A stretch of DNA of 64,000 nucleotides, taken from positions 33,892,420-33,956,419 of the forward strand of contig NC_049979.1 in the NCBI RefSeq assembly GCF_000003815.2, given 5' to 3'. The notes beneath the pieces are model-generated. The model did not search any database. It had not been told where the DNA came from and worked only from the letters and a program-made list of their open reading frames with translations. This stretch comes from Branchiostoma floridae. Lineage: Eukaryota > Chordata > Leptocardii > Amphioxiformes > Branchiostomatidae. Shown here piece after piece: positions 7,104-62,140 of this stretch (the first letter of the stretch is position 1; each line of letters starts with the position of its first letter). The translations under genes and the position numbers were made by a program.

Positions 7104-8447
7104 TTACTGGGTTGCAGAATATGGTTCTTTCATATCATCGTCATTGTAATCTTCTGCGTTAAGGTAAATGTGTCCACAAGCCTGTGATTCTGACTCTGTT
7201 TCAGGTACAATTCTGTCGGGCCGTGTTTCCTGCATGCAGAAATCTATTGTCGCGTTTGGATCATTGCTACTACCTTCCTGATCATCACCCTGGGCGTGGT
7301 TAGTAGGTAAACCATTCTGGGCGTTCTGGTTGACATTGTTGTTTACAACTAAGCCAGCCGCCATGTTGTTTACTGGGGCTGGCGGGGCCTTTGTGTCATC
7401 TGGTTGTTTCCTAACCAGTGACGAATAAACAGCTAGCATCAGAACACAGACAAGACTGGTCACTCCAACAACCAGTGTTGGTAGATCTGGTGCCTTTGTG
7501 TGATTCAGTTCAACTTTGTTTGGTTTCTCACTCCCTAGTTCTAGATCGTTGGTCACTGGGGGCAACAAGTACGAAGTTAAGACGTCAGAGGGACGAATGT
7601 CCTGACGTTCTGTGGAACAAAACCTGTTAGGATTACAGGGCTTGGGTTTGAACCAATTAATTTCAGCTGTCGGATCCCAGACTACATAACATGCTGAGAT
7701 ATTAATATATTCATGCATCCTGTGAAGCTCTACGTTCTCTACTATAGGGGGTGTTTTACAGCGGAACATAGACTGGTCTCTGTACAAGGCACGTGCAATG
7801 TCACTCCCTCTGAGGAACTTTTCGCATCTTGGGGATGTTTTCTTTCTGCATTTCTCAACAAAAATTGCGATATCAATGAGCCAAATCATGTTGCAATAAC
7901 AGTGGAAAGGGTTACCCCTTATGACAGGTTCATATTGTATGATTAAACCACTTGGCACATGCAAGTCCCACCCAAGATCGCACATAGACAGTAATTTTAA
8001 GCTGTTGTAGGAAACGTCCACCCTTTTCAACTTAGGCCAGAATGACTTAACATGATAAAGGTTGACACAGGAGAGCTTATTATGTGACAAATCCAAAGAT
8101 ACTAACCTTGACATGTTCTTAAGACATTGCCACGGAAAGTAAGTTATTGCGTTGTTCCTGACGTTCATCGTCTTCAAGTACGGCAGGGAAATGCAGGGGA
8201 ATGTGGTTAGGGCGTTATTGGGAAGCTGAAGCCCAACGAGGTTTGAAGGCAGGTCTTTGGGAACACTCCTCAAGCCTTTGTTGTCACAATATATCCGGGG
8301 CAAAAGAGAATGCGGTGGCCCAAGTTTCTTATCGTTGTGCCAATTTTGAACGTTACATCCTTGAGATCGTGGTTGTGAAAGTGATGATGCTTCGCAATCA
8401 TATGGTACGTTCAAAATTATGACCACAAAAAACAGAACCGCGATCAT
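7104..8447 (-). CDS. LRR transmembrane receptor, left paralog (447 aa)
   Basis: Type I membrane protein. A hydrophobic signal peptide spans residues 1 to about 19. An LRRNT-like Cys region (C31, C54) follows, then about four LRRs around residues 56-155 with LxxLxLxxN patterns (LVSLDLSHNKL, LKRVDVSYNSL). The LRRCT cap is 179-232 (NPFHCYC...C...C). A short Ig-like start with a B-strand Cys and INW follows but stops after about 40 residues. The TM segment is about 322-344. The Asn/Asp-rich tail ends with a YLNAEDY motif; YxN is the Grb2-SH2 consensus type. The single open exon starts at the ATG matching the paralog's start; an earlier GTG-initiated extension is not conserved. It pairs with the 447-aa gene at 14542, 5' end to 5' end across the inverted duplication. 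A role in surface recognition is inferred. No LRR-TIR (TLR) tail is present. Confidence 0.85.
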   Translation of the reverse strand: MIAVLFFVVIILNVPYDCEASSLSQPRSQGCNVQNWHNDKKLGPPHSLLPRIYCDNKGLRSVPKDLPSNLVGLQLPNNALTTFPCISLPYLKTMNVRNNAITYFPWQCLKNMSRLVSLDLSHNKLSCVNLYHVKSFWPKLKRVDVSYNSLKLLSMCDLGWDLHVPSGLIIQYEPVIRGNPFHCYCNMIWLIDIAIFVEKCRKKTSPRCEKFLRGSDIARALYRDQSMFRCKTPPIVENVELHRMHEYINISACYVVWDPTAEINWFKPKPCNPNRFCSTERQDIRPSDVLTSYLLPPVTNDLELGSEKPNKVELNHTKAPDLPTLVVGVTSLVCVLMLAVYSSLVRKQPDDTKAPPAPVNNMAAGLVVNNNVNQNAQNGLPTNHAQGDDQEGSSNDPNATIDFCMQETRPDRIVPETESESQACGHIYLNAEDYNDDDMKEPYSATQ

Positions 8448-9357
8448 GCTGGCATGCTCTAGATACACGTAAAAAAATATTTCGTTGTTTTGGGATCAGG
8501 AACAAGGCTTATTAATCCTTTACTTATACAATGAAAACATTGGAAATATTTCTAATTGTAGTTTTCTTTGCATCCTCTAAACCCTTGATTCTTGTTGCCT
8601 GCTGTGTCAGAATGTTTATGGGTTAGCTTGTTTTATCTTATCGTTTGTGAGAAGGTTAGAGTTGGAGGTAAATCGATTAAAAATCTGTCACATGAACTAA
8701 AAAGAATCATGTGTCAGTTGAATCCTCCACTTTAGACAAATTATATAGCAACGCATATGTCAGCAGCGAATGTTGTATGATACTAAGTGCTATGTCTAAC
8801 CACTGACACTAACTGTACTGTTCTTGGGCCGGAGAAAACTGCTTCTTCCACCAAACCAACACTCTGTGGATTGGATGTCCAAGCCTTAGGTTCAGGTCAC
8901 CAGATGAACATTTTCCCTGGTCTACCAGATCTAGAAACCAACACAAAATAATAATGATCATAAATTTAAAGTTTTCAGGTGCCAAATAATAAACAGATAA
9001 ACACTAGAAATCAACAGTGATCAGCATGAAAATAAGTCAATAGGAACTAATTGAAATGCACAAAGATAAATCTTTTTGTACTGATCGTACGTATCAAAAA
9101 GGCACGTCAAATCAATTTATAAACACAGTGTCTGTTGTGAAACACATTTGTTACAATATTGAATCACTTGTCGCCGTCATTAGATGTGGTGCCTGTGTCG
9201 TATTTTGCAGTTTCAAACATTTAAACATTTTCTCATTAACTTACACCATAAAAAGGCCCAACAAAAAAAGCGAAGAGCAATTTTGGAACGTCTCTTCTTT
9301 CAAGCAAATATTGTCTGGTTTCTTGGACAGGAATATCTAAAATACACACATACGTTG
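8448..9357. other. Upstream flank of left LRR gene, conserved in the right arm
   Basis: There is no convincing coding sequence. The block 8780-8950, including 'gtccaagccttaggttcagg', is matched on the other strand at 14040-14180. It presumably holds the promoter/5' UTR of the receptor, but no core promoter motif could be assigned. Confidence 0.5.
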
Positions 9358-13614: not shown

Positions 13615-14541
13615 AAACGTATGTATGTATTTTAGATATTCCTCTCCAAGAAACCAGACAATATTTGCTTAAAGAAGAAACGTTCCAAAAGTGCTATTCG
13701 CTTTTTTGTTGGGCTTTTCTATGGTGTAAGTTAATCGGAAATGTTTAATGCATTGAAACTGCAAATACGACACAGGCACGACATCTAATGATGGCGACAA
13801 GCGATTCAATACTGTAACAAATATGCTTCACAACATGATAGTCACTATGTTTATAGATTGATTTGACATGATTTGACATGATACGTACGATCAGTACAAA
13901 GAGACTTATCTTTGTGGATTTTAATTAGTTCCTATTGACTTATTTTCATGCTGATTACTGTTGATTTCTAGTGTTTATTTGTTTATTGTTTGGCACCTGA
14001 GAACTTTTATTCATGATAATTATTATTTTTGTGTCGATTTCTAGATCTGGTAGACCAGGGAAAATGTTCATCTGGTGACCTGAACCTAAGGCTTGGACAT
14101 CCAATCCACAGAGTGTTGGTTTGGTGGAAGAAGCGGCCCCAAGAACAGTACTGTCAGTGTCAGCAGTTAGACCTAGCACGTACTATCATACAACATTCGC
14201 TGCTGACGTATGTGTTGCTATATAATTTGTCTAAAGGGGAGGATTCAACAGACAAATGATTGCAGTAGAAAGATTAGTTAATATTTTTCTTAGTTCATGT
14301 GACAGATTTTTGATCTCTTTGCCTGCAACTCTAACCTTCTCACAAACGATAAGATAAAACAAGCTAACCATAAACATTCTGACACAGCGGGCAACAAGAA
14401 TCAAGGGATAGAGGATGTCCGAATGCACTTAAGTACACTCAGAAATATTTCCAAGGTTTATAGTCTACAAGTAAAGGATTAATAAGCCTTTTTTTCAAAC
14501 AACGAAATCATATTTTTTACCTTTATCTAGCGCATGCCAGC

Positions 14542-15885
14542 ATGATTGCGGTTCTGGTTTTTGTGGTCATATTTCTAAACGTATCGTGTAATTTCGAAGC
14601 ATCATCACTTTCACAACTGCGATCTCAAGGATGTAGCGTTCAAAATTGGCACAACAATGAGTTACGTGGGCCACCGCATTCTCTTTTGCCCCGGATATAT
14701 TGTGACAACAAAGGCTTGAGGAGTGTTCCCAAAGACCTGCCTTCAAACCTCGTTGAGCTTCAGCTTCCCAATAACGTCCTAACCACATTCCCCTGCATTG
14801 CCCTGTCGTACTTGAAGACGATGAACCTCAGGAACAACGCAATAACTTACTTTCCGTGGTACTGTCTGAAGAACATGTCAAGCTTAGCATCTTTGGATTT
14901 GTCACATAATAAGCTCTCCTGTGTCAACCTTTATCATGTGAAGACGTTCTTGCTCAACTTGAAGCTAGTCAACATCTCCTACAACAGCTTAAAGACATTG
15001 CCTACGTGCGATCTTGGGTGGGACTTAAACGTACCAAATGGGCGTCATGTACCATATGAACCTGCTATAGGGGGTAACCCTTTCCATTGCGATTGCAACA
15101 TGATTTGGCTCATTGATACCGCGATTCAGGTAGAGAAATGCAGAAAGAAAACATCACCAAGATGCGAAAAGTTCCTCAGAGCGAATGACTTTGCACGTGC
15201 CATGTACAAAGACCACTCTTTGTTCCGCTGTAAAACACCCCCTATAGTAGAGAACATAGAGCTTCACATGTTGCATGAATATATTGATATCTCAGCATGT
15301 TATGCAGTCTGGGATCCGACAGCTGAAATTAATTGGTTCAAACCCAAGCCCTGTAATCCTGACAGGTCTTGTCTCGCAGAAGGACAAGACATTCGTCCCT
15401 CTGACGTCTTAACTTCGTCCTTGTTGTCCCCAATGACCAAAGATCCAGAACTAGGGAGTGAGGAACCAAAACAAGTTGAACTAAATCACACAAAGGCACC
15501 AGATCTACCAACACTGGTTGTTGGAGTGACCAGTCTTGTCTGTGTTCTGATGCTAGCTGTTTATTCGTCACTGGTTAGGAAACAACCAGAAACAACAAAT
15601 GCCCCGCTAGCCGCAGTAAACAACATGGCGTTCGGCTTAGTCCTAAACAACAGTGTCGACCAGAACGCCCAGAATGGTTTACCTACTAACCACGCCCAGG
15701 GTGATGATCAGGAAGGTAGTAGTAATGATCCAAACGCGACAATAGATTTCTGCATGCAGGAAACTCAGCCCGACAGAATTGTACCTGAAACAGAGTCAGA
15801 CACACAGGCCTGTGGACACATTTATCTTAACGCAGAAGATTACGATGACGATGATATGAAAGAACCATATTATGCGTCCCCGTAA
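14542..15885 (+). CDS. LRR transmembrane receptor, right paralog (447 aa)
   Basis: Same length and layout as the gene at 7104-8447: signal peptide 1 to about 19, LRRNT-like Cys pair, about four LRRs, LRRCT 179-232 (NPFHCDCNMIWLID...C...C), half Ig-like segment with INW, TM about 322-344, Asn/Asp-rich tail ending in YLNAEDY. By eye roughly four residues in five match the paralog. A stretch of about 33 tail residues is identical, while LRR-face and LRRCT positions differ often. The ATG at 14542 is chosen because the in-frame upstream codons contain no Met and the paralog starts at the same point. Head-to-head orientation with the paralog suggests possible co-regulation. No introns are seen in the coding region. 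Confidence 0.87.
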   Translation: MIAVLVFVVIFLNVSCNFEASSLSQLRSQGCSVQNWHNNELRGPPHSLLPRIYCDNKGLRSVPKDLPSNLVELQLPNNVLTTFPCIALSYLKTMNLRNNAITYFPWYCLKNMSSLASLDLSHNKLSCVNLYHVKTFLLNLKLVNISYNSLKTLPTCDLGWDLNVPNGRHVPYEPAIGGNPFHCDCNMIWLIDTAIQVEKCRKKTSPRCEKFLRANDFARAMYKDHSLFRCKTPPIVENIELHMLHEYIDISACYAVWDPTAEINWFKPKPCNPDRSCLAEGQDIRPSDVLTSSLLSPMTKDPELGSEEPKQVELNHTKAPDLPTLVVGVTSLVCVLMLAVYSSLVRKQPETTNAPLAAVNNMAFGLVLNNSVDQNAQNGLPTNHAQGDDQEGSSNDPNATIDFCMQETQPDRIVPETESDTQACGHIYLNAEDYDDDDMKEPYYASP

Positions 15886-18178: not shown

Positions 18179-20800
18179 TCAGTACCTCTCGCTATTTTGC
18201 GAGCTAGGAAATGTCACATGATGATCATCAGCTGGATATTTTTGTCCCGTCTCTTCTTGTTGTTTTTCAACATCTTCCGTACCAGGAAATGTCACATAAG
18301 TATGATGTAAACTGTCGTCTTCATTGAACAGGTCTGGCTCTTTCTCGTTACAATGTTCTGTCTGTATGTCCTGATCTTCAGCATCTTCCGTCACAGGAAA
18401 TGTTACATAGTCATGATCTGGCATGTTAGCATCACTAACAGACCCGGAGACGAAGTCCTTGTCTGTGTTTTCTCCCTCACTTTGTAAATCTCCGGCTCCA
18501 GTTTCATTTTCTGTGCTAGCTTTAGGGAACGTCATATATTTTGGATCTGTGTCGTCTTCTCCTGTATCGTCCGAGACACTGGCAGAAAAATCCTTGGTCT
18601 TCTTCTCGTTATCATAATGTTCCCCTGCTCCTCCTGAATCTGAGAACTGGTTATCATTCTCGAAGTGTCCATCTCTGGCTCCTCCTGCATTTAAGAATTG
18701 GTCATCATTCTCATATTGTCCATCTCTGGCTCCTTCATTTAAGAACTGGTTATCATTCCCGTAGTGTCCATCTCTTGCTCCTCCTCCGTCTGAGAACTGG
18801 TTATCATTCTCATAGTGTCCATCTCTGGCTCCTTCTCCATCTGAGAACTGGTTCTCATTCTCGTAGTGTCCATCTCTGGCTCCTTCTTCATCTGAGAACT
18901 GGTTATCGTTCTCGTTATGTCCATCTCTAGCTCCTCCTGGATCTGAGAACTGCTCATCATTCTCGTAGTGTCCATCTCTGGTTGCTCCTACATCTGAGAA
19001 CTGGTTCTCATTCTCGTAGTGTCCATCTATGGCTCCTGTTCCATCTGAGAACTGGTTATCGTTCTCGTTATGTCCATCTCTAGCTCCTCCACCATCTGAG
19101 AACTGGTTCTCATTCCCGTAGTGTCCATCTCTGGCTGCTCCTGCATCTGAGAACTGGTTATCATTCTCGTAGTTTCCATCTATGGCTCCTGTTCCATCTG
19201 AGAACTGGTTATCGTTCTCATAGTGTCCATCTATGGCTGCTACTCTGTCTGAGAACTGGTTATCATTTTCGTAGTGTGCATCTCCTGTGTGTCCGACCGT
19301 GTTTGAAAACTGGTTGCCGTTCTGATAGTGGCTTTCTCTTGCAGAACCATCTGCCCCTGCACAAGGGGCAACAGGGGCATCATTTCCAGAGCCTCCATCT
19401 GCTGCATTTATATGTCCATTGTCCATCTGGCGTATTCCTTGAAACTTGTAAACAAAAGCGGTTATTGCTCCAAAGATAATGCAACAACCACAGAAAGATA
19501 CCAGTCCAGCAATAATAAGCTCTGTAGTAGACAGTAGTCTGGTAGGGGGAAGGTTTGGGGTATCCTTTTTAATAGCAATGTCATCTACTGGCACCATGTT
19601 ATCCTGGACTGCTGTTGGGTCCTGAGGGTTGTACTGTCTGGTGCTCCTCTCATTTGGTTTTGTTGTAATATCATCAGATTGAGCCATGTTATCTTGTCTT
19701 GCTGTTACGTCCTGGTACACTGCAGATGCAGTACCATTCTGGGTGTGGTCAGCAGTCACTTTGCATGTGTATGTGCCATTTCCCATCGGGAGGATGTTCA
19801 ACACAGAGTAGCACATTCTCTTTGTTTCTAGTCTTGAGGCGTTTGACCCTTTACACAATAGTTTGCTGACGTGGGTGTAGTTTTTGGAGAACTCGTAACT
19901 TGATGACCTGTGGTCTCCGTTTGGTGGTATCCATGAGAACTTCAGACCTTCCTGACAGTCTGTCTGGCAGGTGAAGGAAACGTTACCTGTAACAGTCCCA
20001 TTGTCTGTGATGATAGACACGTCAGGTGAGGCACACGTCAGGTCATCCCAACGGACATCTTCAATCAGCCTGGAGGTGCCAGTTTTATGATCCACGCACG
20101 GAATTTTCCACAGAAATTTCTTGTTATTTTCGAGAATGAATTTCTTGATTTCTCTCACACGGCAGTCACACCGAATCTTGTTGTGAATCAAATCCAACCC
20201 TTTGACATGCTTGAAGTCTCCAATATTTGTCACAGATGTTATAGGGTTGTTAGTCAATAACATTGTTCTGATAGACTCTGTACCTTGTGGAATACTAGAC
20301 AGGCAATTATTCTTGATAGACATGGACCTAAGTTTGATGAGTCTGGCAAAAGCAGTATTCGCAATGTGATATATCTTATTATCGTCCAAGTTTATCCTTC
20401 CAAGCTGCTCTAGTCCCTTGAATGTTTCTGCCTCCAGTCGCCTGATACTGTTCCGACGGAGATCTAGATCTTTCACACGCGGTAAGCTTTCGAAGCAGCC
20501 TGGTTGTAGATTCACAACATGACTGTCCTGTATGCGCAGGTCTATCAAAGACGTTAGACCATGAAAATCTCCCAGCCTGATATCTGTGATATTCTGATGC
20601 TGTAGTAATAATTCATGAAGAGTCGGTGGCATTGGTGTGGGGATGTGATGGAAACTGCAAGCTTTTAAACACCATAGTGCGTCCGGAAATTTCTCACAGC
20701 ATTGCAAACTAAAGGAAATGGTCGTGGAGATTGTTTCACCCCATATCACAAGAAGTAATGTACATGTGATAGACAAACTTATACACCTTGGGTTCGCCAT
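18179..20800 (-). CDS. LRR-Ig transmembrane receptor with tyrosine-motif repeat tail (873 aa)
   Basis: Single exon from ATG 20800. Signal peptide about 1-27; LRRNT-like Cys cluster 34-48; about six LRRs 60-210 (LTSLIDLRI, VKDLDLRRNSI, LGRINLDDNKI, LRSMSIKNN); LRRCT 210-256; one Ig domain about 258-364 (VSFTC, FSW, GTYTC); a stalk with two copies of a QDNMxxxDDIxxK motif; TM about 427-451. The tail is unusual. Residues 491 to about 735 are 15 units of about 17 residues (H-Y-x-N-D/E-N-Q-F-S-D...G-A-x-D-G), 12 of which keep a YxN motif. Residues after 750 carry four Y/H-V/M-T-F-P motifs about 40 residues apart. YxN is a classical Grb2 SH2 ligand and YxxF fits an endocytic YxxPhi signal. Many NxS/T sites are present. 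The domain order matches known LRRIG-type receptors. Ligand and signalling are unknown. Confidence 0.88.
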   Translation of the reverse strand: MANPRCISLSITCTLLLVIWGETISTTISFSLQCCEKFPDALWCLKACSFHHIPTPMPPTLHELLLQHQNITDIRLGDFHGLTSLIDLRIQDSHVVNLQPGCFESLPRVKDLDLRRNSIRRLEAETFKGLEQLGRINLDDNKIYHIANTAFARLIKLRSMSIKNNCLSSIPQGTESIRTMLLTNNPITSVTNIGDFKHVKGLDLIHNKIRCDCRVREIKKFILENNKKFLWKIPCVDHKTGTSRLIEDVRWDDLTCASPDVSIITDNGTVTGNVSFTCQTDCQEGLKFSWIPPNGDHRSSSYEFSKNYTHVSKLLCKGSNASRLETKRMCYSVLNILPMGNGTYTCKVTADHTQNGTASAVYQDVTARQDNMAQSDDITTKPNERSTRQYNPQDPTAVQDNMVPVDDIAIKKDTPNLPPTRLLSTTELIIAGLVSFCGCCIIFGAITAFVYKFQGIRQMDNGHINAADGGSGNDAPVAPCAGADGSARESHYQNGNQFSNTVGHTGDAHYENDNQFSDRVAAIDGHYENDNQFSDGTGAIDGNYENDNQFSDAGAARDGHYGNENQFSDGGGARDGHNENDNQFSDGTGAIDGHYENENQFSDVGATRDGHYENDEQFSDPGGARDGHNENDNQFSDEEGARDGHYENENQFSDGEGARDGHYENDNQFSDGGGARDGHYGNDNQFLNEGARDGQYENDDQFLNAGGARDGHFENDNQFSDSGGAGEHYDNEKKTKDFSASVSDDTGEDDTDPKYMTFPKASTENETGAGDLQSEGENTDKDFVSGSVSDANMPDHDYVTFPVTEDAEDQDIQTEHCNEKEPDLFNEDDSLHHTYVTFPGTEDVEKQQEETGQKYPADDHHVTFPSSQNSERY
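18600..19330 (-). repeat. 51-bp coding minisatellite in the LRR-Ig receptor tail
   Basis: Fifteen units, mostly 51 bp and two of 48 bp, encode the 17-residue tail repeat. All length changes are multiples of three, so the frame is kept. Units 6 and 9 have Asn and unit 14 has Phe in place of the Tyr; the other twelve keep Tyr-x-Asn. Confidence 0.93.
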
Positions 20801-22340
20801 CTCAGAGTTGTGTCTTCATAAAGATGTCCAATAAGTGGCCACTTAACATCACCATCCCTGGAATTAATTAGCATGTATTAATGTAAGAACTTTGGTCATT
20901 TCCAGATCGGAGTAGACATACTGTACCCTTACTATGAATACAATTCAGAGAGACGAGGTGAATGGGCCGTTCCTGCCGGGAAGATGTTTTAGGGCCACCG
21001 TCTTGCCACAACCTGGACATTTCCTTGGCCTCTTCTTCTTTGGACTTATCTTTGTGTTGGATGACTTCGATAGGTTGACTTGTCTTGGAAAAAGGACGAC
21101 TTTTTCTTACTTGGTTTGACGAGCGCCTACAAAGCTGTGGCCTCGCCGTGGCGACGACAAATGAAACTGAAACCCAAGCGGGCAAGAAAATGAAGCCCAG
21201 TTGTGTTCCCGGGCGAGTCTAAATAATCTATTTGGTGTTCTTCCAAACTCGTCTAAAGGGTGTTCGAATCTCTTCCACTCCCCAGACTTTTTAAGGAGAA
21301 ATTCTCCTGCTTAAATCTTACCAAGGACATTATATAAAATTGTCCTTGATTTCACAAGGCATAATATATACATAGTACTAGTTGAAGGGTGAAAGAGAAA
21401 AAGAAAATTCATGAATACAAAATACCTCAGAAAGATGGTAACATTAGATAGAGAATGGTCATCGCAAGGAGCGTATTTTGTTGCTTATTGTACTCCTAAA
21501 AATTGAAAAATATTGTATGAGACCTAGGACAAAATGACTTAATTATTGTAAAACGGAGGCAGAATCAAGTGTATGACATTGTCTATTATCATTTTGGCAC
21601 TTTTGGTCTTTTTCCCCCCTCCTCCATATTTAGGGGCCAAATTTTGCTGACAGACTAAGCTACGTTTAATGAAATTTCTTAGTGAAAAGATACACAAGCT
21701 AGGGTTTCAACTTGATTTTTTTCAATACTATACTATTCTCCCTCGTTTAAAATTGTTTTTCAATGGCCCTCCCCCAGGCCAAAAAAGAAAAATTCAAAGG
21801 CCTTCCCCCAGTGCACCAGCCCTCCCCAGTAGATATCGTACAATCCCTTATCATTCGGACATACATTGATGGCACCAGGTAATCTGTCTGGGAATTTCTG
21901 GGCAAGACAGATTTGATTGACAGTTCTATGCCACCACTAGTGCTCACACGAAAAAAAACACACTCTGATTAGTTCCATAACGGAGGTCAGTGACCTCCAA
22001 TGATCCAATGAAAAGTTCTTAACTGGAACTATGCGGCTCCAGATGTCTTACTGAGGGATGACTGCGTTGCGAGAGATGTCAGTTACCACAGGAATTACTC
22101 TACTGTATACTTCAATGGTGTTACGTACTTCCATGTACATGTGTAGTTGGAGGTACTGGGGATATATCTCAAGAACCGCTCGATGTATTGCGATGGATGT
22201 GGATGGTTAGCAGATAGGGTGACCCCGACAATGAAGGTTGCTGTTGTTCCTCCTGGCGATTGGCCTAAGTACTGCAGCAGCGATTTTGTTTGGATATTAT
22301 TGGTTGTGTCTGAGTGGTGGGACTTCACTAGGGTACAGCT
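20801..22340. other. Upstream region of LRR-Ig gene, no clear gene
   Basis: It probably holds the promoter/5' UTR of the LRR-Ig receptor. A minus-strand frame around 20935-21115 reads a basic segment followed by RKCPGCGKTVALKH, which looks like a small zinc-knuckle, but it lacks a start and splice context and I leave it uncalled. The rest shows no gene. Confidence 0.45.
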
Positions 22341-27403: not shown

Positions 27404-28355
27404 ATGAGCCAGTCAATCATAGGAGAAAACAATCCTTCAAATCATAGGGAGCAAGAAGGACTGACAAGCCCATTACAACATGAAGATAATCCAGAACCTG
27501 ATGATGTTCATGTGCTGGATGCAGAAAACACTGCAGGGTCAACAAAAATGTCAGCCTGCCTTAAAGTCTCTCCAAAAAAACAAGGAGAGGAAATGTTCAT
27601 TGGACAAAATCCAATTTACCTTACAAATCTAGAGGAGCTGACCAGCCCATTACAAAACGAAGAGGCCACGTATGTAACTGGCAATGGACCTGAACATACA
27701 AGTCAGTCTGATATGATCACGAATGAACATTTTTATGTAATTCCAGAAAATGAAGATTTGCCCTCCCCATCTACTGATGTATATTTTGTATCTGACAAGA
27801 ACAATACTGAAGAATCGGCCATGTACACTGCCTCTGCTGAAAATGAAGAACTAGATGCCAATGATCATGAACAAACTGAAGAAGAACCTAAACTCAAGCA
27901 AGCAGACAGTACAGTTGCCGTGACATCAAACACCAACAGGGATGCTGACAGATCTCAGCCCGACACTTCAGAAAATCAGCCCGACACTTCAGAAGATGAT
28001 GCCAACGATGAAGCCTGCCGTAAAGACCTCTACGACGATGGCGACATGCAACCGTACGCTGTTGCAGACATGTGTGATCACGAAACATATCTTCACACAG
28101 CAGCTTCAAGAGCACGGCAGACAGAGGAGCATAGAAATGCTGAACAAACAGGCAGTGACTCTAATGCACAGGAGGCTCGGAATTTCCATAGCAAAGGATT
28201 TCCAAACCCGATGTACGGAGCAAACGTTCCCCAACAGGCCTCGAAAGACACAGGAGCACATGATATTCAGAATCCTTCAATTGATTCAAATGAACTTAAA
28301 GGCAATCCGATGTACGTATCTAATGCTGGGCAGCAGGCCCCAGATGACGCCAATG
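27404..28355 (+). CDS. Exon 1: acidic tail with three NPxY motifs
   Basis: It encodes residues 1-317 plus the first base of codon 318. It is acidic, Asn/Gln/Glu-rich and probably disordered. NPIY is at 69-72 and NPMY at 268-271 and 301-304, with other Tyr in acidic context (HFYVIPE, VYFVSD, DLYDDGD). NPxY is the recognised PTB-domain and clathrin-adaptor signal, so endocytosis or PTB signalling is plausible. The donor is G|GTAAGA. Reading past it gives an artefactual extension to 28462. A QPDTSEN/QPDTSED doublet lies at about 185-197. Confidence 0.88.
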
Positions 28356-31300
28356 GTAAGATGACTGACACAAACTTGTTGTATTTCTGGACAGAAGGCC
28401 CACCTTGTTGTTCAATTCATACATTTTGTATTTGGAACCCAGGTTTTCGCCAACACAGTTGAGCATAGACTGTGATTTGCATTACGTATGCTGTGATTCG
28501 GGCCCCTGCACTGTGTTTTAAACAGTGGCTTTTCTGTTATTTTAGTATGAAATGTTGGCTTTACTTCATTGAATTTGGCCCTCAAAATGGTGGAAATTAT
28601 TTCTGAGGGTTATAGATTTCAAAATTTTTAGGAGGAGGATGCTCTCAGATGCCCCTACAATGGTCATGCACACCCCACATGGATTAAATACTCAGATGCC
28701 CACAACACTGTGAAAACACTGGAACCTTTCTTTTATTAAATCTGTCACCTGTACATGTAATAATGTTATAAATGATGGTCTAAATTCTTCACTACATTAT
28801 CCTGCAATCGTATTTTCATAATTACATTATGCCAAAGGAGGGATATGACTTAAAGGAGTCCAAAACTACACAACGGGTGATTGTTTTCTGAAAGATATTA
28901 ATTTTAGGACGTAAAATAGCCTTGCAACTTCACATTATACGATAAGTTTGTTTTTACTTATATCACAAACTCACTGGTTTAACTTTGATTATCAAACAAA
29001 CAGGCTGTTGTGCAGTCCATCGATGTTACTTGTTAGCTGCTTTGATGGTTGCCCTGCTCCTCATTGGACCTGCGGTCACAGGAATTCTCAAAGTAAGTGT
29101 TTGTAGCGTGAGATCGCGTGGCGCAGCGGTACTGAAAATGAGTACCTACGAGGGGCGGTCAATAAGTAATGTCCCTGACCCACTTCCAGTCGTCTGATCT
29201 AGATGAAATTTTGTATGTGTAATGATTAATATCTTTATAGGTTTTGAAAACACTAATTATTGTTTCTGATTTACTGGTGTTTGAACTGAGTCAGGTGCGA
29301 AATGGACCATGTGTGAAATGGAACCAGTTGAGTGTCGCGCAGTGATCCGGTTTTTGTATTTGAAAGGACGCACACCAAAGAAGACTTTTGATGAAATGAA
29401 AGAAACATATGGTGATGATGCCCCATCATATGACCTTGCAAAACGCTGGCATCCTGAATTCAAACATGGCCGGAAGTCTGTGGAAACAGCTCCCAGACCT
29501 GGTCGTCCCTCTTCTGCCATTGATGAGGCATCTGTTGGAGGACCAACCTGGGGTGTCATACAAAAACGGTGTCAGCTGCATCAAACGATGGGAGAAATGC
29601 ATAACCCTGGGTGGTTCCTATGAAGAGAAAGACTAATAACTGTGCCATGTTTCATTAATCTCCTGCTATAGAAAATGGGTCAGGGGCATTACTTATTGAC
29701 CGCCCCTCGTAGCTTTGGTTAGGGCCATCCATTGGATAGGACATTAAATGGAGGTCCCGTCTTTGGGGAGAGCCACACCTCCAGCACGTTAAAGAACGCA
29801 CCGCGATGGTGCGGTGTGAGTGGCTCAAAACCTACAGTTCCTGGCTGCAATTGGGGCAATTACTGTCGTATCGAGGAACAGCATTGATACACCTAAAACA
29901 AAAAGAGTGTGACAGCCACACACTGTTTTGAAAAAAAAGATGGGCCATGACTTTTGTACACATAAGGAACCCTCTGACATGCCTACAGTGGATGAGCATG
30001 CCTGTGGACACATTCCTGTACAATTCCTAGAATTCTTGCACACAATTCAGACTGCACGCAATACCGTACCATTAGGCTGACCCCTAAGGCATCGCCAAAA
30101 ATAGTAAATGTTAAAAGGCTTACTTTTTTTATGTAGAGCATCAGAGGTACCAACCCAACCAACCTTCAAGTTGGTAGCATCAATGGTACCAACCATCCCA
30201 CCCTCGGTAGCATCGAAGGTACCAACCCACCCAACCTTGCTAGCATTGATGGTACCAATGCACGAACACTTCGTAACATCGATTTTACCAACACACCGAC
30301 GTTTGGTAGCATCAATTATGATACCAACCCACGCGACGTTGGAAGCACTGATGGTACCAACCCACGCGACGTTGGTAGTATCGATGGTACCAACCCACGC
30401 CACGTTGGAAGCATCGAAGATACCAACCCACCCACCCTTGGTAGCATCAATGGTACCCATGGTACCAACCCAGTCAGTTGCAACACTGGTGGTACCTACC
30501 CACTCATCAAAGGTAAGTAATAGAAGTTCAATCTAACCTTAGGTAAAAAAGTTATAATGTTCAATCTAGTCACAGTTTTTCACAACATCTGCTCACCGAC
30601 ACCTGATTTCTTCGTCGTAGTCCAGATGTCAGAAAAATTTCCCGACAAGTCAAAATTATGTACCCAACATCTCCTGCTTGCATTTAAACTGCCAACTACT
30701 CCATTATTACATGCTCGTGTGCAGCCAAAGATGAAGGGAAGTAATAAATTACCATGCACTTTTTTTAACAAACAAACTACTGTTTCTTCAAATGGGTTGA
30801 ACATTTAATTCAGCCGAGGCATTTCAGAACAATAATCATTTTCGATGATTTGACCGTAAACTGGTAACCTTGTGTTAGACAGTTACAAAAATGGCGGAAG
30901 GAGACAAATCTCAATGTTCTCATTAGTATTTGAATTTTGAAACATTTATAAAAATTCACATTGAGAAAATAGAAATTCATGAAATGAAGCTATCATCGAT
31001 ACAGAAAGAGCCTGCCAAATGGACACCATGCATCTGTCTTGCCCAGCAGACAAGTTGCTTGTGATTGACGATGCCTTCTTTGGACGGAGGACCAGACAGA
31101 CCATGAGCGGCTGTAAATGTGGCTGGTTCAGCCGATGTAACTTGGATAAGTGTGGAGAAATAGAGGCAGGGTACGTAGAAGTACCATAGACTGACCTACA
31201 ATAATTCCACCCCTGACACCCTTAGTGCACTCCTGTTTGTAAGAATTGCCCTACAGGGCAAGTACTACAAAAAAATTTCTACTTGCCACAACCTCAACTT

Positions 31301-34034
31301 TTCACTGGCCCCAGAATTGTATTATTTTTACACATTTTACTTGTACTTTTACAATTAAAGGAAATCCTTCTATTTTTCTGTATAAAACATGTAACAATGT
31401 TTTCATCATTTACAAGACATATTTACAAGGATTCCTCAAGCTTGCTTAATTTACACCTTAGCTTAATGCCTAGTGACTTCATATTAAACATGGTAGCTGT
31501 TTTGGAACCTGGCATCTTGGCTTGCCAAAAATGATATTTTGATAAGCTAGAAAAGCAAACATTACGGAAACGTGCAATTGTTTACACTTAACAATGATTA
31601 TGCACTGTTTGCTTCTCAAAAGATCACTTGTATATTAACCGGGTAATCAACTTGATTAGCTGGCAGTAGGAATCAAGACCTATGATTTGTAAGATTCAAT
31701 GTTTTATAACATCAAAAGGGTGTATATTTTGTTCAGTGAATAACAAAGAAGTGAGGGTTGCTTGTAACCAGGAACTGTTGCATTTTAGTGTCATTGATGA
31801 CAAAAGCACTGTATTGTCATTAATTTTGTACCATCATGTATTTTCTTGTAATAGACAATTGCTAAACAGAGCTGAAGTCGTTGTAAGGAGGACATGTCAG
31901 GGTTTGCAGCAGTGCAACGTGGAAGTACTACTCTCTAGGTCTAGATTTGGTAACCCCTGTCCAAAAACGAAGAAGCACTTGGAGGTGACATACCATTGTG
32001 AAGGTGGGCACCGATATCTATTTCTCTTCTAATTGCAGGAATGTGTATCTAAACTAAATTTATTTTCGGGTACAGATCACAAAGTGGTACAAGTGTATGT
32101 GTCACACACAGCCAACCATGTTCTCCCAACCTTCTCCGGACCATAGTTGAGAGTTAAGCCCCTGTCACACATAGCCAACCATGGCCTCCCAACTTTCTCC
32201 AGTATATGGTTGGGAGTTAAGCCCCTGTCACACATAGCCAACCATGGCCTCCCAACCTTCTCCAGACCATAGTTGGGAGTTAAGCCCCTGTCACACATAG
32301 CCAACCATGGCCTCCCAACCTTCTCCAGACCAAAGTTGGGAGTTAAGCCCCTGTCACACATAGCCAACCATGGCCTCCCAACATTCTCCAGACCATGGTT
32401 GGGAGTTAAGCCCCTGTCACACATAGCTGACCATGGCCTCCCAACCTTCTCCAGACCATAGTTGGGAGTTAAGCCCCTGTCACACATAGCTGACCATGGC
32501 CTCCCAACTTTCTCCAGTATATGGTTGGGAGTTAAGCCCTTGTCACACATTAACCAATCTCCAAGCTGAGGTTAGGCTCCGACTGTTTTTTGACGTTTTC
32601 TTTAGGCGTTCCTATCGGTCTTTCTATTTTGTACCGTTTTGTTGATGTCTCGTGGCCGTGAGACATCAAGAAAACGGTACAAAATAGAAAGCCTGATAAA
32701 AATACCTAAAAAAACGTCAAAAAACAGCCAGAGCCTAACCTCTGCTTGGAGAGTACTAAATGTGTGAGTCTCAAGGGCCTTTAACTTTTAACATGACTAC
32801 ACAATGACCTCAACTGTCTCTTGTAGTGGTAAATGGTCATCTTAGTTTGTATCAAATGTTTTCCTCATCTCCATCTTCCATCATAGAGCCATGATCATGA
32901 TTCAATTCTATGGATGACATCCACACACGCATCAAGTTTGGTCCATTTCCGACAAACAAAGTTACGTCAAACTATACTGTAAATTGAACAAAATTTAAAG
33001 CACCTGCAAAATGAGTAGAAACATGAGGTGAATTTCCAAAAATATTGCAAAATGGATACTTAAATTTGTCTAGAATGCCAAAGTAAAAAAAAAGAAGGTG
33101 TTAAACAACAAAAATGAAGAGTCTATAATTGTCTGGATAGGATTTACCTATAGATTTGTTTTCTAACTTTTATAGTGTAAAAAGTGGTGCCCACTTTTCT
33201 AAGTGTTTTACTTTCTTTGTTTCCCCTGCAGAAAAGAAAGAAAGGGTCAGTTCCCGAGTAAAAACAGAGGGACTGGCTGTGTCCTCCGATAACGAGATAT
33301 TTGTGACCCATAAGAAAAGAAAATTAATCCAAGTCTTAAGCATGAAGGGTGTTAAACTTCGCAAAATCCCTACAGGAGACATGCAACCATGCGGTATAGC
33401 CACAGACCTCAACAACTCCCTGTGGGTTGTTTTGCGAGGCCGCGAAAATCGCCCCTTTTATGAAAATGCTGTCAGTCAGTACAGCAAAGATGGCCACGTC
33501 CTTGCCAAGTACAATTGCAACGGCCGATTCAGAATCCATGGGATTGCAGTGGACAAGCTTTCTGACAAGATCATACTGACAATAGATCGACATTCTAGTG
33601 GAAGCTACAATGCGGAAGCCGTGTGGTTCCATCCAACACAAGGGACACCAACATGTAACATGAGCAAGTTTGGGTCGATAGAAGGACAGGCACCAGAGGC
33701 TGTCACAGTGGACAAGAGAGGGAACATCTTCATAGCAAACTGGTACAATCATCGTGTTTTGAAGTATGACAAGGATGGAGTCTACCTTTCCAGTTTCGGC
33801 AGTCGAGGCACTGGAGCGGGGTATCTTAACGGGCCCTCCGGAATCTGTGTGGATAGTTTGGGCCGTGTGATTGTGGCTGATAGTGGTAACCAGCGAGTGG
33901 AGATGTTCACAGCTGAGGGGGATCATGTCTGCACCGTTGCCTACATCAGTAGACCAGTGCGTGTTGATATAGGTGGGGAGGGGCAGCTTGTAGTGTCCAA
34001 TTCAGCCTCTGTAACAATCTTGCCCAAACATTAA
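27404..34034 (+). CDS. Type II membrane protein with SUEL lectin and NHL propeller (839 aa, six exons)
   Basis: Reconstructed by splice phase: 27404-28355 (ends phase 1), 29004-29092 (ends phase 0), 30137-30512 (phase 1), 31005-31170 (phase 2), 31870-32003 (phase 1), 33232-34034 with stop TAA. The sum is 2520 bases, exactly 840 codons. Order of parts: cytoplasmic tail 1-318, TM about 326-346, repetitive stalk 348-472, SUEL/galactose-binding lectin 473-573, NHL beta-propeller about 574-839. There is no signal peptide, and His-Arg before the TM favours an N-in topology, so lectin and propeller face outside. SUEL domains bind rhamnose/galactose-type sugars, and NHL propellers bind protein, glycan or RNA in different families. 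An acceptor-like 'tttttcaccag' just before the ATG suggests a 5' UTR intron. AATAAA follows at about 34152. The exon joins are inferred and need cDNA. Confidence 0.82.
29004..29092 (+). CDS. Exon 2: transmembrane segment
   Basis: It is an 89-base exon between 'aaacaaacag' and the donor GTAAGT. It codes CCAVHRCYLLAALMVALLLI and a few more residues, one hydrophobic helix preceded by Cys and basic residues. Phase 1 in and phase 0 out fit exons 1 and 3. Confidence 0.82.
29149..29709 (+). mobile_element. Internally deleted mariner element in intron 2
   Basis: The TIRs are CGAGGGGCGGTCAATAAGTA and its complement, and TA flanks both ends (29147-29148, 29710-29711). Inside, a frame from about 29309 encodes the N-terminal HTH of a mariner transposase (IRFLYLKGRTPKKTFDEM, KRWHPEFKHGRKS, GRPSSAIDE). 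Another frame then gives its C-terminus (CIKRWEKCITLGGSYEEKD, stop TAA). The middle with the catalytic DDD/E residues is missing, so the element is non-autonomous. Confidence 0.92.
29830..30110. repeat. Dispersed repeat, copy related to 50640-50870
   Basis: 'acattcctgtacaattccta' and 'gaattcttgcacac' are matched by 'attcctgtgcaattcctaga' at 50780. Both copies end in a similar 'gactcccctgaggcgtcg' / 'gacccctaaggcatcg' stretch. The type is unknown, and the copy sits in intron 2. Confidence 0.6.
30137..30512 (+). CDS. Exon 3: GTNPxxLGSI-repeat stalk
   Basis: Residues 348-472: about ten degenerate 11-12-residue units of the type P-P-T-L-G-S-I-D-G-T-N. At DNA level this is a 33-36-bp minisatellite built around GGTACCAACC. 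Units include SINGT sequons that could be N-glycosylated. It joins the TM to the lectin and so acts as an extracellular stalk. The acceptor is 'atgtag', the donor 'aaag|gtaagt'. Minus-strand frames over it are shadows of the repeat. Confidence 0.82.
31005..32003 (+). CDS. Exons 4-5: SUEL-type lectin domain
   Basis: Exon 4 (31005-31170) reads ERACQMDTMHLSCPADKLLV then DDAFFGRR and several Cys. Exon 5 (31870-32003) reads VRRTCQGLQQCNVEV, FGNPCPKTKKHLEVTYHC. These are the hallmarks of the SUEL/Gal_Lectin fold (C...L.CP......A.FGR, C.G...C.V, FG.PCP...K.L.V.Y.C). The internal junction is phase 2. At about 100 residues it is a complete single domain. Both exons are easily missed because each is short. 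Confidence 0.85.
32098..32545. repeat. 63-bp tandem repeat in intron 5
   Basis: About seven units; the word 'cctgtcacac' recurs at 32161, 32224, 32287, 32350, 32413 and 32476. Each unit contains CTCCCAAC and GTTGGGAG flanking about 15 bases, so each could form a hairpin. Because 63 is divisible by three, minus-strand frames stay open, but this is not taken as coding. Confidence 0.92.
32544..32766. mobile_element. Long palindromic MITE (~220 bp)
   Basis: The left half, with 'aatctccaagctgaggttag', 'gactgttttttgacgtt' and 'ctattttgtaccgtttt', is the inverse of the right half, with 'aaaacggtacaaaatag', 'aacgtcaaaaaacagcc' and 'cctctgcttggagag'. The centre is around 'gtctcgtggccgtgagac'. The ends are 'cacacatt' and 'aatgtgtg'. 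It abuts the 63-bp array, whose units also contain 'cacacat'. Confidence 0.88.
33232..34034 (+). CDS. Exon 6: NHL beta-propeller
   Basis: After the acceptor 'cccctgcag' the exon codes residues 573-839. NHL-type repeats are visible: GLAVSSDNEIFVTHKKRKLI, PCGIATDLNNSLWV, IHGIAVDKLSDKIIL, PEAVTVDKRGNIFIANWYNH, PSGICVDSLGRVIVADSGNQ, ending NSASVTILPKH. Five to six blades are visible, close to the usual six. The extracellular placement, if the topology is right, differs from TRIM-NHL proteins, which are cytosolic. Confidence 0.88.
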
Positions 34035-34690
34035 AGCCACATGCATCCATTTGCTTCCCACCCATTCAAATTTTCACTCCATTCTTGTCATACTTCACAA
34101 TTCACTGTTTTGACCAATTGAAATTACTTGTTGAAAAAAAAAGATTGTCGTAATAAAGATTTTATTGAAATCAAAGAGTTAATACTGTATACAAAAATAT
34201 AATATACAGAATGATCAAGAGAATGTGATATAATTGATGTCCATGCAAATGACAAAATGTGAATCACCATTAGAGTTGAACTACATGTACCTAATACCAA
34301 AGATCCACTATGTTGTGTTATACCATCAAGTAATTTACGTATTGAGACTGCAGGCCTATTTCACTCTCAAGTCCATTCAAGCTCCTTCCCAGGATAACAA
34401 CAATTCAGATGTACTGTATAAAAGCAACAATTTTGAGGTAAAATTGTGCGAAAACTAGACATTTTGACAAAATTGTCACGTAACAACTACCTTCAGTTCC
34501 TACACGTAACGTTACATGTAGGATGATTGACAGCTCCGTCAGACGGTGAGCTAATGTCGTCCCATGGTACAAATTGACAATCTCCAAGAGCAAAAACAAC
34601 CATTGCAAGTTAAAGAATACAGTCTGACGTGAATATTAACAACAATGTGAAAAAATACTAGCAATGCAGAAATGCGTTTAATTTCAGCTA
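34035..34690. other. 3' flank of lectin-NHL gene
   Basis: An AATAAA-containing sequence at about 34152 probably serves polyadenylation. No gene is seen in the rest. 'acgtaacgttacatgtagg' near 34505 includes the TAACGTTA word common in this scaffold. Confidence 0.5.
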
Positions 34691-46275: not shown

Positions 46276-46467
46276 ATACCCCCTTCACATTAGGCGCGAT
46301 TCGATCGGACGACGAGCCTGCGAGCTCTAATTTACGAGGAGGCATGACCCTGATGCCGACGAAAAAAATGGACATTTCCCCCTTCCCGGCCAGGTCATGC
46401 CTCCTCGAAATTTAGAGCTCGCAGACTCATCGTCCGATCGAATCGCGCCTAATGTGAAGGGGGTATT
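46276..46467. mobile_element. ~190-bp palindromic MITE inside the GPCR
   Basis: ATACCCCCTTCACATTAGG to CCTAATGTGAAGGGGGTAT, with TA on both outer sides. Inner halves GATCGGACGA, 'gcgagctctaatttacgagg' and 'aggcatgacc' are mirrored. It lies between the N-terminal domain and TM1 of the GPCR. A degraded relative is at 16967-17127. Confidence 0.9.
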
Positions 46468-47324
46468 ACACAGGCTCCCGCGTACGCTGCAGTATGTCTT
46501 GGCTTCTGGTCGGTGGTGGCAAACAGCCTCCCTCTAGCTGCCATCATGAAACACGAACATCTCCACACACCTGCGTACATCCTCATGGCCAATCTGGCTG
46601 CCAGTGACGTTCTGACGGGTATAGACTTCAATATTTTTGCCGGTTGTTCGGTTTTGTACTACTTCCACACCGAGACCAACCCGTCCGAAACCATGTTGCG
46701 ACTCCAGTTCACGCTCCTCTTGCTCTCCGGACTGTCCTCAGCCTACAGTTTGCTAGCCTTGACGACCGAGCGCCACTGGTTCATCGTCCACGGGATGACA
46801 TACGTCAACAAAGTCACCGACGACAAGTGTAAGGTCGTTGTCTTGATCGTCTGGCTGTGGTCTGTGTTGTTGGCGATGCTGCCAAACTTCGGGTGGCACT
46901 GCGCGAGCCGTGCGGAGGAGGGATGCCTGCGGAGGATTGCTCCTCAGCTACGTGGTGCTCATCTTAGCGTTCGTTTTCATCCCGATGGCCGGGATCGTCT
47001 TTTTCAACCTGAGCGTCTTCTGGTGTCTCTGGAAACACGTGAACGCCATCGCTGCACAAGAAGCCGCCGTGCGTCAGCAGAAAATCTGCAGTCACCGTCG
47101 TCATCATCACCGTTGTGATCCTCGTGGGGTGGTTGCCATTTTCTATCAAGATGACCATGTTCACCCAAGACAGCGTTTCAATGGCTGTGTTTGTCTTCAT
47201 CATCTTGAACTCCGCCATCAACCCTGTGATCTACGGGTTCCGTCTACAGGAGGGCCGACGCGGTGTCGCACGGCTCTTTCGTAACAACCACTTGCACGCC
47301 GGAAACGTCGAACTCAATCCGTAG

Positions 47325-59884: not shown

Positions 59885-62140
59885 GTGGTTGGCCGTTTCG
59901 ACTGGTGTGACATTGTACGGAAGGACTAAAATGCCCTGTAGTATTGTAGTATTGTAGTAGGTCTTGCCGCTACGAGGGTAGCGGGGCATGTCACTTCTCG
60001 TGTACGGGACGACCTGGCCTTTCAGCCGTAAAAGATATTGTGGTTGGCCGTTTCGACTGGTGTGACATTATACGGAAGGACTAAAATGCCCTGTAGTAGT
60101 GTAGTATTGTAGTAGATCTTGCCGCTACGAGGGTAGCGGGGCATGTCACTTCTCGTGTACGGGACGACCTGGGCTTTCAGCCGTAAAAGATATTGTGGTT
60201 GGCCGTTTCGACTGGTGTGGCATTATACGGAAGGACTAAAATGCCCTGTAGTAGTGTAGTATTGTAGTAGATCTTGCCGCTTCGAGGGTAGCGGGGCATG
60301 TCACTTCTCGTGTACGGGACGACCTGGGCTTTCAGCCGTAGAAGATATTGTGGTTGGCCGTTTCGACTGGTGTGACATTATACGGAAGGACTAAAATGCC
60401 CTGTAGTATGGTAGTATTGTAGTAGGTCTTGCCGCTACGAGGGTAGCGGGGCATGTCACTTCTCGTGTACGGGACGACCTGGGCTTTCAGCCGTAAAAGA
60501 TATTGTGGTTGGCCGTTTCGACTGGTGTGACATTATACGGAAGGACTAAAATGCCCTGTAGTATTGTAGTATTGTAGTAGATCTTGCCGCTTCGAGGGTA
60601 GCGGGGCATGTCACTTCTCGTGTACGGGACGACCTGGGCTTTCAGCCGTAGAAGATATTGTGGTTGGCCGTTTCGACTGGTGTGACATTATACGGAAGGA
60701 CTAAAATGCCCTGTAGTATTGTAGTATTGTAGTAGGTCTTGCCGCTACGAGGGTATAGGGGCATGCCACTTCTCGTGTACGGGACGACCTGGGCTTTCAG
60801 CCGTAGAAGATATTGTGGTTGATCGTTTCGACTGGTGTGACATTATACGTATGGTCTAAAATGCCCTGTAGTAGTGTAGTATTGTAGTAGGTCTTGCCGC
60901 TACGAGGGTAACGGGGCACGTCACTGCTGGTGTACGGGACTACCTGGCCTTTCAGCCGTGGAAGATATTGTGGTTGGCCGTTTCGACTGGTGTGACATTA
61001 TACGGAAGGACTAAAATGCCCTGTAGTAGTGTAGTATTGTAGTAGGTCTTGCCGCTACAAGGGTATAGGGGCATGCCACTTCTCGTGTACGGGACGACCT
61101 GGGCTTTCAGCCGTAGAAGATATTGTGGTTGGCCGTTCCGACTGGTGTGACATTATACGAATGGTCTGAATTGCCCTGTAGTAGAGTAGTATTGTAGTAG
61201 GTCTCGCCGCTATGAGAGTAGCGGAGCACGCCACTGCTGGTCTACGCGACGACCTGGGCTATCAGCCGTAAAAGATATAGTGGGTGATCGTCTCGACTGG
61301 TGTGACATTATACGGAAGGTCTAAAATGCCCTGTAGTAGTGTAGTATTGTAGTAGGTCTTGCCGCTATGAGGGTAGCGGGGCATGTCACTGCTGGTGTAC
61401 GGGACGACCTGGGCTTTCAGCCGTAGAAGATATTGTGGTTGGCCGTTTCGACTGGTGTGACATTATACGAATGGTCTGAATTGCCCTGTAGTAGTGTAGT
61501 ATTGTAGTAGGTCTTGCCGCTATGAGGGTAGCGGGGCACGCCACTGCTGGTGTACGGGACGACCTGGCCTTTTCATGCGGTAAAAAATATTGAGGTTGAC
61601 CGTTCCTACTGATGTATTACATTATACGGATGGTCTGAAATGCCCAGTAGTAGTGTAGTATTGTAGTAGATCTTGCCGCTACGAGGGTAGCGGGGCACGC
61701 CACTGCTGGTTTACGGGACGACCTGGGCTTTCAGCCGTAGAAGATATTGTGGTTGATCGTTTCGACTGGTGTGACATTATACGGAAGGACTAAAATGCCC
61801 TGTAGTATGGTAGTATTGTAGTAGGTCTTGCCGCTACGAGGGTAGCGGGGCATGTCACTTCTCGTGTACGGGACGACTTGGCCTTTCAGCCGTAGAAGAT
61901 ATTGTGGTTGGTAGTTCCCACTGGTGTGACATTATACGGATGGTCTTAAATGCCCTGTAGTATTGTAGTATTGTAGTAGGTCTTTCCGCTGTAAGGGTAT
62001 CGGGGCATGCCACTTTTCGTGTACGGGACGGCCTGGGCTTTCAGCCGTCGAAGATATTGTGGTTGGTCGTTTCGACTGGTGTGACATTATACGGATGGTC
62101 TAAAATGTCCTGTAGTATTGTAGTAGGCCTTGGGTATCGG
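59885..62140 (+). repeat. 155-bp satellite array, about 14 units
   Basis: The word 'gtggttggccgtttcgactg' starts at 59885, 60040, 60195, 60350, 60505 and 60660, exactly 155 bp apart. The first six units are nearly identical; units after about 60800 carry more substitutions and indels. Each unit has a variable GTAGTATTGTAGTAG-type microsatellite segment and a 'gccgctacgagggtagcgg' palindrome-like core. No unit has coding character. Confidence 0.97.

What the first reader, a model, noticed from the sequence alone, without database searches (positions are those of the whole stretch)
27404..34034. A type II receptor joining a SUEL lectin to an NHL propeller, with NPxY tail
Six exons join in consistent phase to exactly 840 codons, giving an architecture I do not recall as a described family: NPxY cytoplasmic tail, TM, repetitive stalk, SUEL sugar-binding domain, NHL propeller outside the cell. 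The lectin exons are short and lie in a repeat-filled intron, so gene finders could easily drop them and report an isolated NHL exon. Two binding modules on one stalk plus three NPxY motifs suggest an endocytic or signalling pattern receptor.
Basis: partly seen in the sequence, partly recalled or inferred. Interest (0 to 1): 0.82.

Follow-up and report, generated by a model that had tools for sequence, protein, structure and literature searches.

The report
Lancelet receptor family with hypervariable propeller
This animal gene is one of about a dozen cell-surface receptors that carry a lectin and a propeller on a stalk, and the propeller's likely binding face has been pushed to change by natural selection, as expected of a system that recognises varied targets.

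Summary
Six GT-AG exons join to 839 codons plus stop: NPxY tail, TM exon, GTN-repeat stalk, a full SUEL lectin split over two exons, and NHL propeller. It is not a gene-finder chimera. Of 14 loci in this genome with an NHL exon at least 58% identical, 13 have the tail and the first lectin exon upstream, same strand and order. All nine places matching the TM exon at E up to 10 lie between tail and lectin of such loci. One relative read in full keeps all six exons and splice sites.

New: across 12 copies the NHL exon shows strong diversifying selection (2dlnL 172; 12 null simulations reached at most 4.7). Selected codons sit at positions matching RNA contacts of the LIN41 propeller: 16 of 30, against 15 of 237 elsewhere. 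Ten genes from a separate NHL cluster on C17, meant as a control, show the same.

Best reading: a germline-diversified family of type II recognition receptors. Ligand, trafficking, topology and transcripts are untested, and the structure predictions never came back.

The parts
27404..28355 (+). Exon 1: cytoplasmic tail, 317 full codons, with NPIY, FPNPMY and NPMY
29004..29092 (+). Exon 2: transmembrane segment (29 codons), single signal-anchor candidate
30137..30512 (+). Exon 3: stalk of 11-residue GTN-type repeats (33-bp unit)
31005..31170 (+). Exon 4: first part of the SUEL lectin domain
31870..32003 (+). Exon 5: second part of the SUEL lectin domain
33232..34034 (+). Exon 6: NHL propeller (266 full codons) and stop; positively selected codons concentrated at top-face loop positions of blades 4-6
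34152..34157 (+). AATAAA, candidate polyadenylation signal 118 nt after the stop

Best explanation
The gene encodes a type II membrane receptor of a lancelet multigene family. Shown by sequence: tail, TM, repeat stalk, SUEL lectin and NHL propeller form one conserved exon set (tail, lectin and NHL at 13 loci), and the NHL exon is under positive selection at positions that correspond to ligand contacts of a TRIM-NHL propeller. Inferred: lectin and propeller stand outside the cell on a flexible stalk; the SUEL domain gives a glycan or protein foothold; each gene's propeller face binds its own target; the FPNPxY tail drives internalisation and/or PTB/SH2-type signalling. Duplicated genes thereby give a germline repertoire of recognition specificities, most simply for microbes.
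For: Exon set recurs in order and strand at 13 of 14 close NHL loci; all nine TM-exon matches lie inside such loci; one relative read in full. M2a over M1a 2dlnL 171.7; gapless set of 11 copies 171.7, M8 over M7 188.2, subset of 8 copies 131.6, each quarter with its own tree 8.6 to 76.9; 12 null simulations at most 4.68. Selected codons: 16 of 30 LIN41-contact positions against 15 of 237 others, bottom loops 3 of 56; the count peaks at zero when the position set is slid by up to 12 residues. Pocket identity 0.37 against 0.79 elsewhere, 12 of 12 pockets distinct. FPNPxY in 10 of 11 tails compared. NHL exon: three cysteines in 12 of 12 copies and NNS in 12 of 12.
Against: No transcript, ligand or localisation data. 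Copies are paralogues of one genome, so gene conversion could inflate the test, although each quarter with its own tree stays significant. The intended control, ten C17 NHL genes, shows the same pattern, so it is not specific to this receptor. The signal is in blades 4-6 (14 of 15 positions), not blades 1-3 (2 of 15). Usual rhamnose-binding letters are partly lost in this copy. The diverged tail in L037 lacks NPxY at the aligned place. The near-copy has a frameshift in its NHL exon.
Confidence: 0.62

Rival explanations
1. The diversified face serves self/non-self, gamete or allorecognition between lancelets rather than microbes.
For: Positive selection and many duplicate copies fit either; SUEL relatives in the PDB list include egg-type rhamnose-binding lectins and latrophilins.
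Against: Nothing here speaks for a reproductive or colonial role; lancelets are solitary (recalled).
Confidence: 0.2
2. The propeller binds extracellular nucleic acid, keeping the RNA face of TRIM71/LIN41.
For: Closest solved relatives by sequence are Thin and TRIM71, and the diversified positions match the LIN41 RNA contacts (PMC5908797 section 8 part 1).
Against: Pocket letters differ widely between copies and are not uniformly basic, which points to varied ligands.
Confidence: 0.07
3. The apparent selection is relaxed constraint, gene conversion or misalignment among decaying paralogues.
For: Average NHL dN/dS is near 1 (0.95; M0 0.84); at least three copies carry defects near or in the NHL exon (C1 copy frameshift; L026 early stop two residues before the usual end and L035 shifted end).
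Against: A class with omega near 5-6 and a class near 0.1-0.2 coexist in one exon; strands and bottom loops are nearly invariant; gapless columns and separate trees give the same; null simulations stay below 5; the selected sites cluster at predefined positions.
Confidence: 0.05
4. Gene-finder chimera: tail/TM, lectin and NHL exons belong to two or more separate genes.
For: Such false fusions are documented for lancelet gene models (PMC4967905, abstract and section 12); weak acceptors at exons 2, 4, 5.
Against: Same order, strand and splice phases at many loci; no in-frame ATG ahead of the NHL domain in its open frame; the ATG inside the TM exon is not kept in the C18 relative.
Confidence: 0.04

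Closest known systems
TRIM-NHL propellers (Thin, TRIM71/LIN41, TRIM2, TRIM3, Brat)
   Same: NHL propeller fold by sequence (Thin E 9.4e-49, TRIM71 3.2e-41); the ligand-contact positions of LIN41 are the diversified ones.
   Different: No RING, B-box or filamin match in the joined protein; joined to a TM and a SUEL lectin; family under positive selection.
SUEL/rhamnose-binding lectins and latrophilin lectin domains
   Same: Complete SUEL domain over the Pfam cut-off; matches 5h4s at 2.7e-19 and latrophilin 1 at 8.3e-7.
   Different: Four Cys in the middle loop against fewer in 5h4s; Q for E, FGR for YGR and NPC for DPC in this copy, while the copies on C7 (L035) and at C18:4.0 Mb (L058) keep CE and YGR. 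Latrophilin's 7TM and other domains are absent.
Teneurins
   Same: Type II receptors with an extracellular NHL propeller (recalled).
   Different: Sequence match only 6e-4; no EGF or YD-type match in the joined protein; carries SUEL instead.
Coral tachylectin-2
   Same: Propeller protein of putative immune role under positive selection (PMC2880987, passages).
   Different: Five-bladed, soluble lectin fold, not NHL, no TM or SUEL.
Diversified lancelet receptor families (TLR, NLR, SRCR, CTL, FBG, LRR)
   Same: Large, fast-turning germline families in lancelets (PMC4284660, passages).
   Different: Other scaffolds; the words NHL and lectin do not occur in that main text.

Membership tests
SUEL lectin domain (PF02140) | Profile match over the curated cut-off along the whole domain | tested here: met
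   43.1 bits against 31.4, profile 1-80 of 80
SUEL lectin domain (PF02140) | Sugar-binding letters (CE.., YGR, DPC; roles recalled, letters seen in 5h4s) | tested here: inconclusive
   Window has CQ, FGR, NPC; L035 and L058 keep CE and YGR, several copies keep DPC; no binding data
NHL propeller (PF01436) | NHL repeats over the cut-off | tested here: met
   64 bits against 20, E 7.5e-18
TRIM-NHL proteins | RING/B-box (and often filamin) before the NHL domain | tested here: not met
   None in the joined protein at E up to 1
Teneurins | EGF repeats and YD shell with the NHL propeller | tested here: not met
   None in the joined protein at E up to 1
Latrophilins (ADGRL) | SUEL followed by olfactomedin, GAIN and 7TM | tested here: not met
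   No 7TM or olfactomedin match
FxNPxY endocytic receptors (LDLR type) | Cytoplasmic FxNPxY motif (LDLR motif recalled) | tested here: met
   FPNPxY in 10 of 11 tails compared
FxNPxY endocytic receptors (LDLR type) | Motif-dependent internalisation | not testable with these tools
   Needs a cell assay
Type II membrane receptor | Single TM signal anchor, N-terminus inside | tested here: inconclusive
   One hydrophobic exon after a long hydrophilic tail, Cys-rich lectin beyond it; no topology program was run
Germline-diversified recognition family | Multigene family with positive selection focused on a ligand face | tested here: met
   face by alignment to LIN41, not by a structure of this protein

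The most novel reading that the evidence does not exclude
Lancelets use the NHL propeller, known as an RNA- and protein-binding part of cytosolic TRIM proteins, as a germline-diversified recognition scaffold: outside the cell in these SUEL-NHL receptors, and also in a tandem cluster on C17 (64 NHL rows listed in 0.7 Mb) of which the one gene examined shows a coiled-coil-like region and no TM or lectin in the part seen. The variable top face would play the part that the concave LRR face plays in other repertoires.
Probability: 0.42. Interest if true: 0.9.

Novelty: new variant of a known kind. Interest (0 to 1): 0.78.

Why it matters
If true, it adds the NHL propeller to the short list of folds that animals diversify for recognition, in the basal chordate group used to study the origin of chordate immunity. 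It is also a well-supported SUEL-NHL domain combination in animals whose novel combinations have been disputed as prediction errors (PMC4967905). The selected positions name the residues to test, and the 12 aligned copies are a ready panel for ligand screens.

Tried and rejected
Separate-gene reading: rejected because tail, TM, lectin and NHL exons recur together. Secreted isoform from the ATG in the TM exon: that ATG is not kept in the one C18 relative read in full. NHL exon with its own start: no ATG in its open frame ahead of the domain. Paralogues inside the window: none by tblastn. Selection from the near-copy alone: too little divergence, 1.1-5.2% in exons and 3.1-3.9% in introns. The C17 NHL cluster as a negative control: it shows the same pattern. 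Papers: SUEL with NHL and amphioxus, SUEL with NHL repeat, SUEL lectin with NHL: none; amphioxus with NHL and domain combinations: none (21); amphioxus, NHL and TRIM as whole words: none (103); a five-term search needing four terms returned only the coral paper, in which NHL does not occur (104). Searches are listings from which some papers were opened.

Limits of the selection test: my own codon-model script; topology and relative branch lengths from a nucleotide tree with one fitted scale; empirical posteriors, no BEB; 12 null simulations. One search used 12 copies; the gapless test dropped L035 and all gapped columns; L035 was cut where its frame shifts; L026 ends at its early stop. Pocket positions come from published LIN41 contacts, but I placed the blade anchors by hand after seeing the alignment; for blades 4 and 5 the direct alignment agrees.
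Full report
What was checked. The window is G000:C1:33892420-33956419 of a genome of 513,431,437 bases in 431 contigs. Pfam finds the full SUEL lectin domain across the exon 4/5 junction and NHL repeats in exon 6. The lectin matches rhamnose-binding lectin 5h4s at E 2.7e-19; the NHL exon matches the propellers of Thin (9.4e-49) and TRIM71 (3.2e-41). The two lectin exons together are flanked by phase-1 introns, a symmetry that PMC4284660 connects with shuffled exons in lancelets (passages).

Is it one gene? Lancelet gene models have produced false domain fusions (PMC4967905, abstract and section 12 read), so this mattered. An inverted copy of the gene lies about 123 kb away (C1:33796622-33790167, minus), with DNA pieces 88-96% identical, most of the length at 92-96%. 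It keeps all splice sites, and its gaps in tail and stalk are 6, 6, 21, 3 and 33, 99 nt, but its NHL exon has a 1-nt gap, so that copy's frame is broken. A search with the NHL exon gave 14 loci at 58% identity or more; below that come one partial match at 53% and the rest at 47% or less, in a capped listing. A search with the tail gave 15 loci: 13 upstream of those NHL exons on the same strand, and two at C18:3.98 and 4.00 Mb. A search with the first lectin exon gave 19 places: 13 at the same 13 loci, one after each of the two further tails, four elsewhere. A search with the TM exon at E up to 10 gave nine places, all between tail and lectin of family loci, five at E below 1e-3 and four at 0.13-0.82; four of the 13 loci gave no TM match. 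The one close NHL locus without tail or lectin match is C18:13602801. Around 11 fetched NHL exons (L025-L035, 1.5 kb flank each side) a lectin exon was found in seven. One relative, C18:18123233-18129444, was read in full: six exons, all splice sites kept, 901 residues plus stop; amino-acid identity 0.79 tail, 0.72 TM, 0.70 stalk, 0.91 and 0.69 lectin, 0.76 NHL; dN/dS 0.53, 2.51 (29 codons), 1.03, 0.45, 0.55, 0.95. The tail locus at C18:4.00 Mb has a diverged tail without NPxY at the aligned place (EPNSMY), a TM, a GTN stalk and both lectin exons, and then only a broken stretch that resembles the family's NHL. I conclude that the architecture is real.

Topology and tail. The sequence shows one hydrophobic exon after a long hydrophilic tail and a Cys-rich lectin beyond it; no topology or signal-peptide program was run, so type II is inference. 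The NHL exon has three cysteines invariant in 12 copies (columns 96, 142, 234), NNS in 12 of 12 and N-[ML]-[ST] at the second site in 11 of 12; two of the three cysteines (96, 142) have no counterpart in the ten C17 exons aligned. FPNPxY is present in 10 of 11 tails compared, the eleventh having FPNPIH, and the cassette is repeated up to three times in one copy.

Selection. Twelve NHL exons (window plus L025-L035) were aligned. With a codon-model script of my own, M0, M1a and M2a gave lnL -4932.3, -4791.5 and -4705.6; 2dlnL 171.7, omega 4.6 at 16.7% of codons. Without L035 and all gapped columns: 171.7 on 257 codons, omega 5.8 at 14%; M7 against M8 188.2; a subset of 8 copies 131.6; halves 47.7 and 112.9; quarters with their own trees 8.6, 52.0, 33.4, 76.9. 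Twelve simulations under the fitted M1a gave at most 4.68. The second lectin exon, 8 copies and 42 codons, gave 7.4; of seven sites with posterior above 0.6, four are in the loop before FG[DN]PC. Tails of 8 of the 11 copies, 279 codons, gave 21.1 with M0 omega 0.93, so a weaker signal exists in the disordered tail too.

Where the selected codons lie. Zebrafish LIN41 contacts RNA through C563, R564, R581, S582, R611, K628, D629, Y658, W660, R676, R707, F722, R752, R770 (PMC5908797, section 8 part 1 read). Chain positions in 6fpt_A are these numbers minus 415, checked against letters printed. They fall on the two residues before and the one after the proline that precedes strand A, or on the two residues after the aspartate that follows strand B. 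Placed on all six blades of this exon that gives 30 positions: 16 have posterior above 0.8, against 15 of 237 others (Fisher p 9.5e-10); bottom loops have 3 of 56. In the gapless set it is 17 of 29 against 14 of 228. Sliding the set by 1 to 12 residues either way lowers the count from 16 to between 0 and 12, with the fall steady over the first four residues each way. The signal is in blades 4-6 (14 of 15), hardly in blades 1-3 (2 of 15). Mean pairwise identity is 0.37 in the pocket, 0.79 elsewhere and 0.82 in bottom loops; all 12 pockets differ. That DA and BC loops share a face follows from LIN41's contacts and from general knowledge of propellers; no structure of this protein was obtained.

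Control. Ten NHL exons from the C17 cluster, of 64 rows listed there, were meant as a control. They show the same: 2dlnL 163.5 on 252 codons, pocket 12 of 26, others 5 of 213, bottom 0 of 56, p 8e-10. So top-face diversification is shared by at least two lancelet NHL expansions and is not peculiar to this receptor. The one C17 gene looked at has a coiled-coil-like and then disordered region before the NHL and no Pfam domain above cut-off in the part seen; exons further upstream were not examined.

Mechanism. Best supported: a diversified recognition family. Shown: architecture, family, and selection at ligand-contact positions. Inferred: topology, a glycan or protein foothold by the SUEL domain, target binding by the propeller, uptake or signalling by the tail. 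The lectin of this copy lacks letters usual in rhamnose-binding lectins (Q for E, FGR for YGR, NPC for DPC), which the copies on C7 and at C18:4.0 Mb keep in whole or part, so sugar binding by this copy is uncertain.

Known or new. Searches found no paper with SUEL and NHL, none with amphioxus, NHL and domain combinations (21), none with amphioxus, NHL and TRIM as whole words (103), and none containing NHL in a search for positive selection, propeller, hypervariable and lancelet (104). They cover open-licence papers only. The nearest precedent seen for a selected propeller is coral tachylectin-2 (PMC2880987, passages). Passages were also seen of PMC12373286, PMC2575513 and PMC9634614, the last describing variable loops and pocket rims among human TRIM NHL domains.

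Noticed in passing
G000:C17:18.29-18.97 Mb (L047-L057): Tandem cluster with 64 listed NHL rows (capped list); ten sampled copies show the same positive selection on the propeller's top face.
   Followed up: partly
window 18179-20815 (-): LRR receptor-like open frame whose C-terminal tail carries about 13 copies of a 17-residue tyrosine-containing repeat (DGHYENDNQFSDGGGAR type; 51-bp array 18627-19284).
   Followed up: no
window 7104-8495 (-) and 14464-15885 (+): Two inverted LRR membrane-protein paralogues with similar tails; further copies near C1:33.766 and 33.783 Mb.
   Followed up: partly
window ~1240-53740 against C1:33.758-33.829 Mb: Many stretches of the window recur, mostly inverted, at 80-96% identity in the 135 kb before it: a broad segmental inverted duplication, or unmerged haplotype sequence; not resolved.
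   Followed up: partly
window 29146-29712: Mos1-type transposase fragment (HTH_48) between 63-nt inverted repeats in intron 2, absent from the inverted copy of the gene (563-nt gap); another copy at C1:33992692.
   Followed up: partly
window 32543-32767: Fold-back element with 60-nt arms in intron 5, next to a 63-bp tandem array at 32100-32550.
   Followed up: no
window 46453-47118 (+): Exon of a rhodopsin-type GPCR (7tm_1, E 1.5e-21).
   Followed up: no
window 56030-57280 (+): Reverse transcriptase of a retroelement (RVT_1).
   Followed up: no
window 59885-62125: 155-bp tandem array, 14 copies, with a similar stretch at C1:33958173-33959628.
   Followed up: no
G000:C18:4002500-4011500 (L037, L058): Older relative: diverged tail without NPxY, TM, GTN stalk, SUEL exons that keep CEG and YGR, and a broken NHL-like stretch.
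   Followed up: partly
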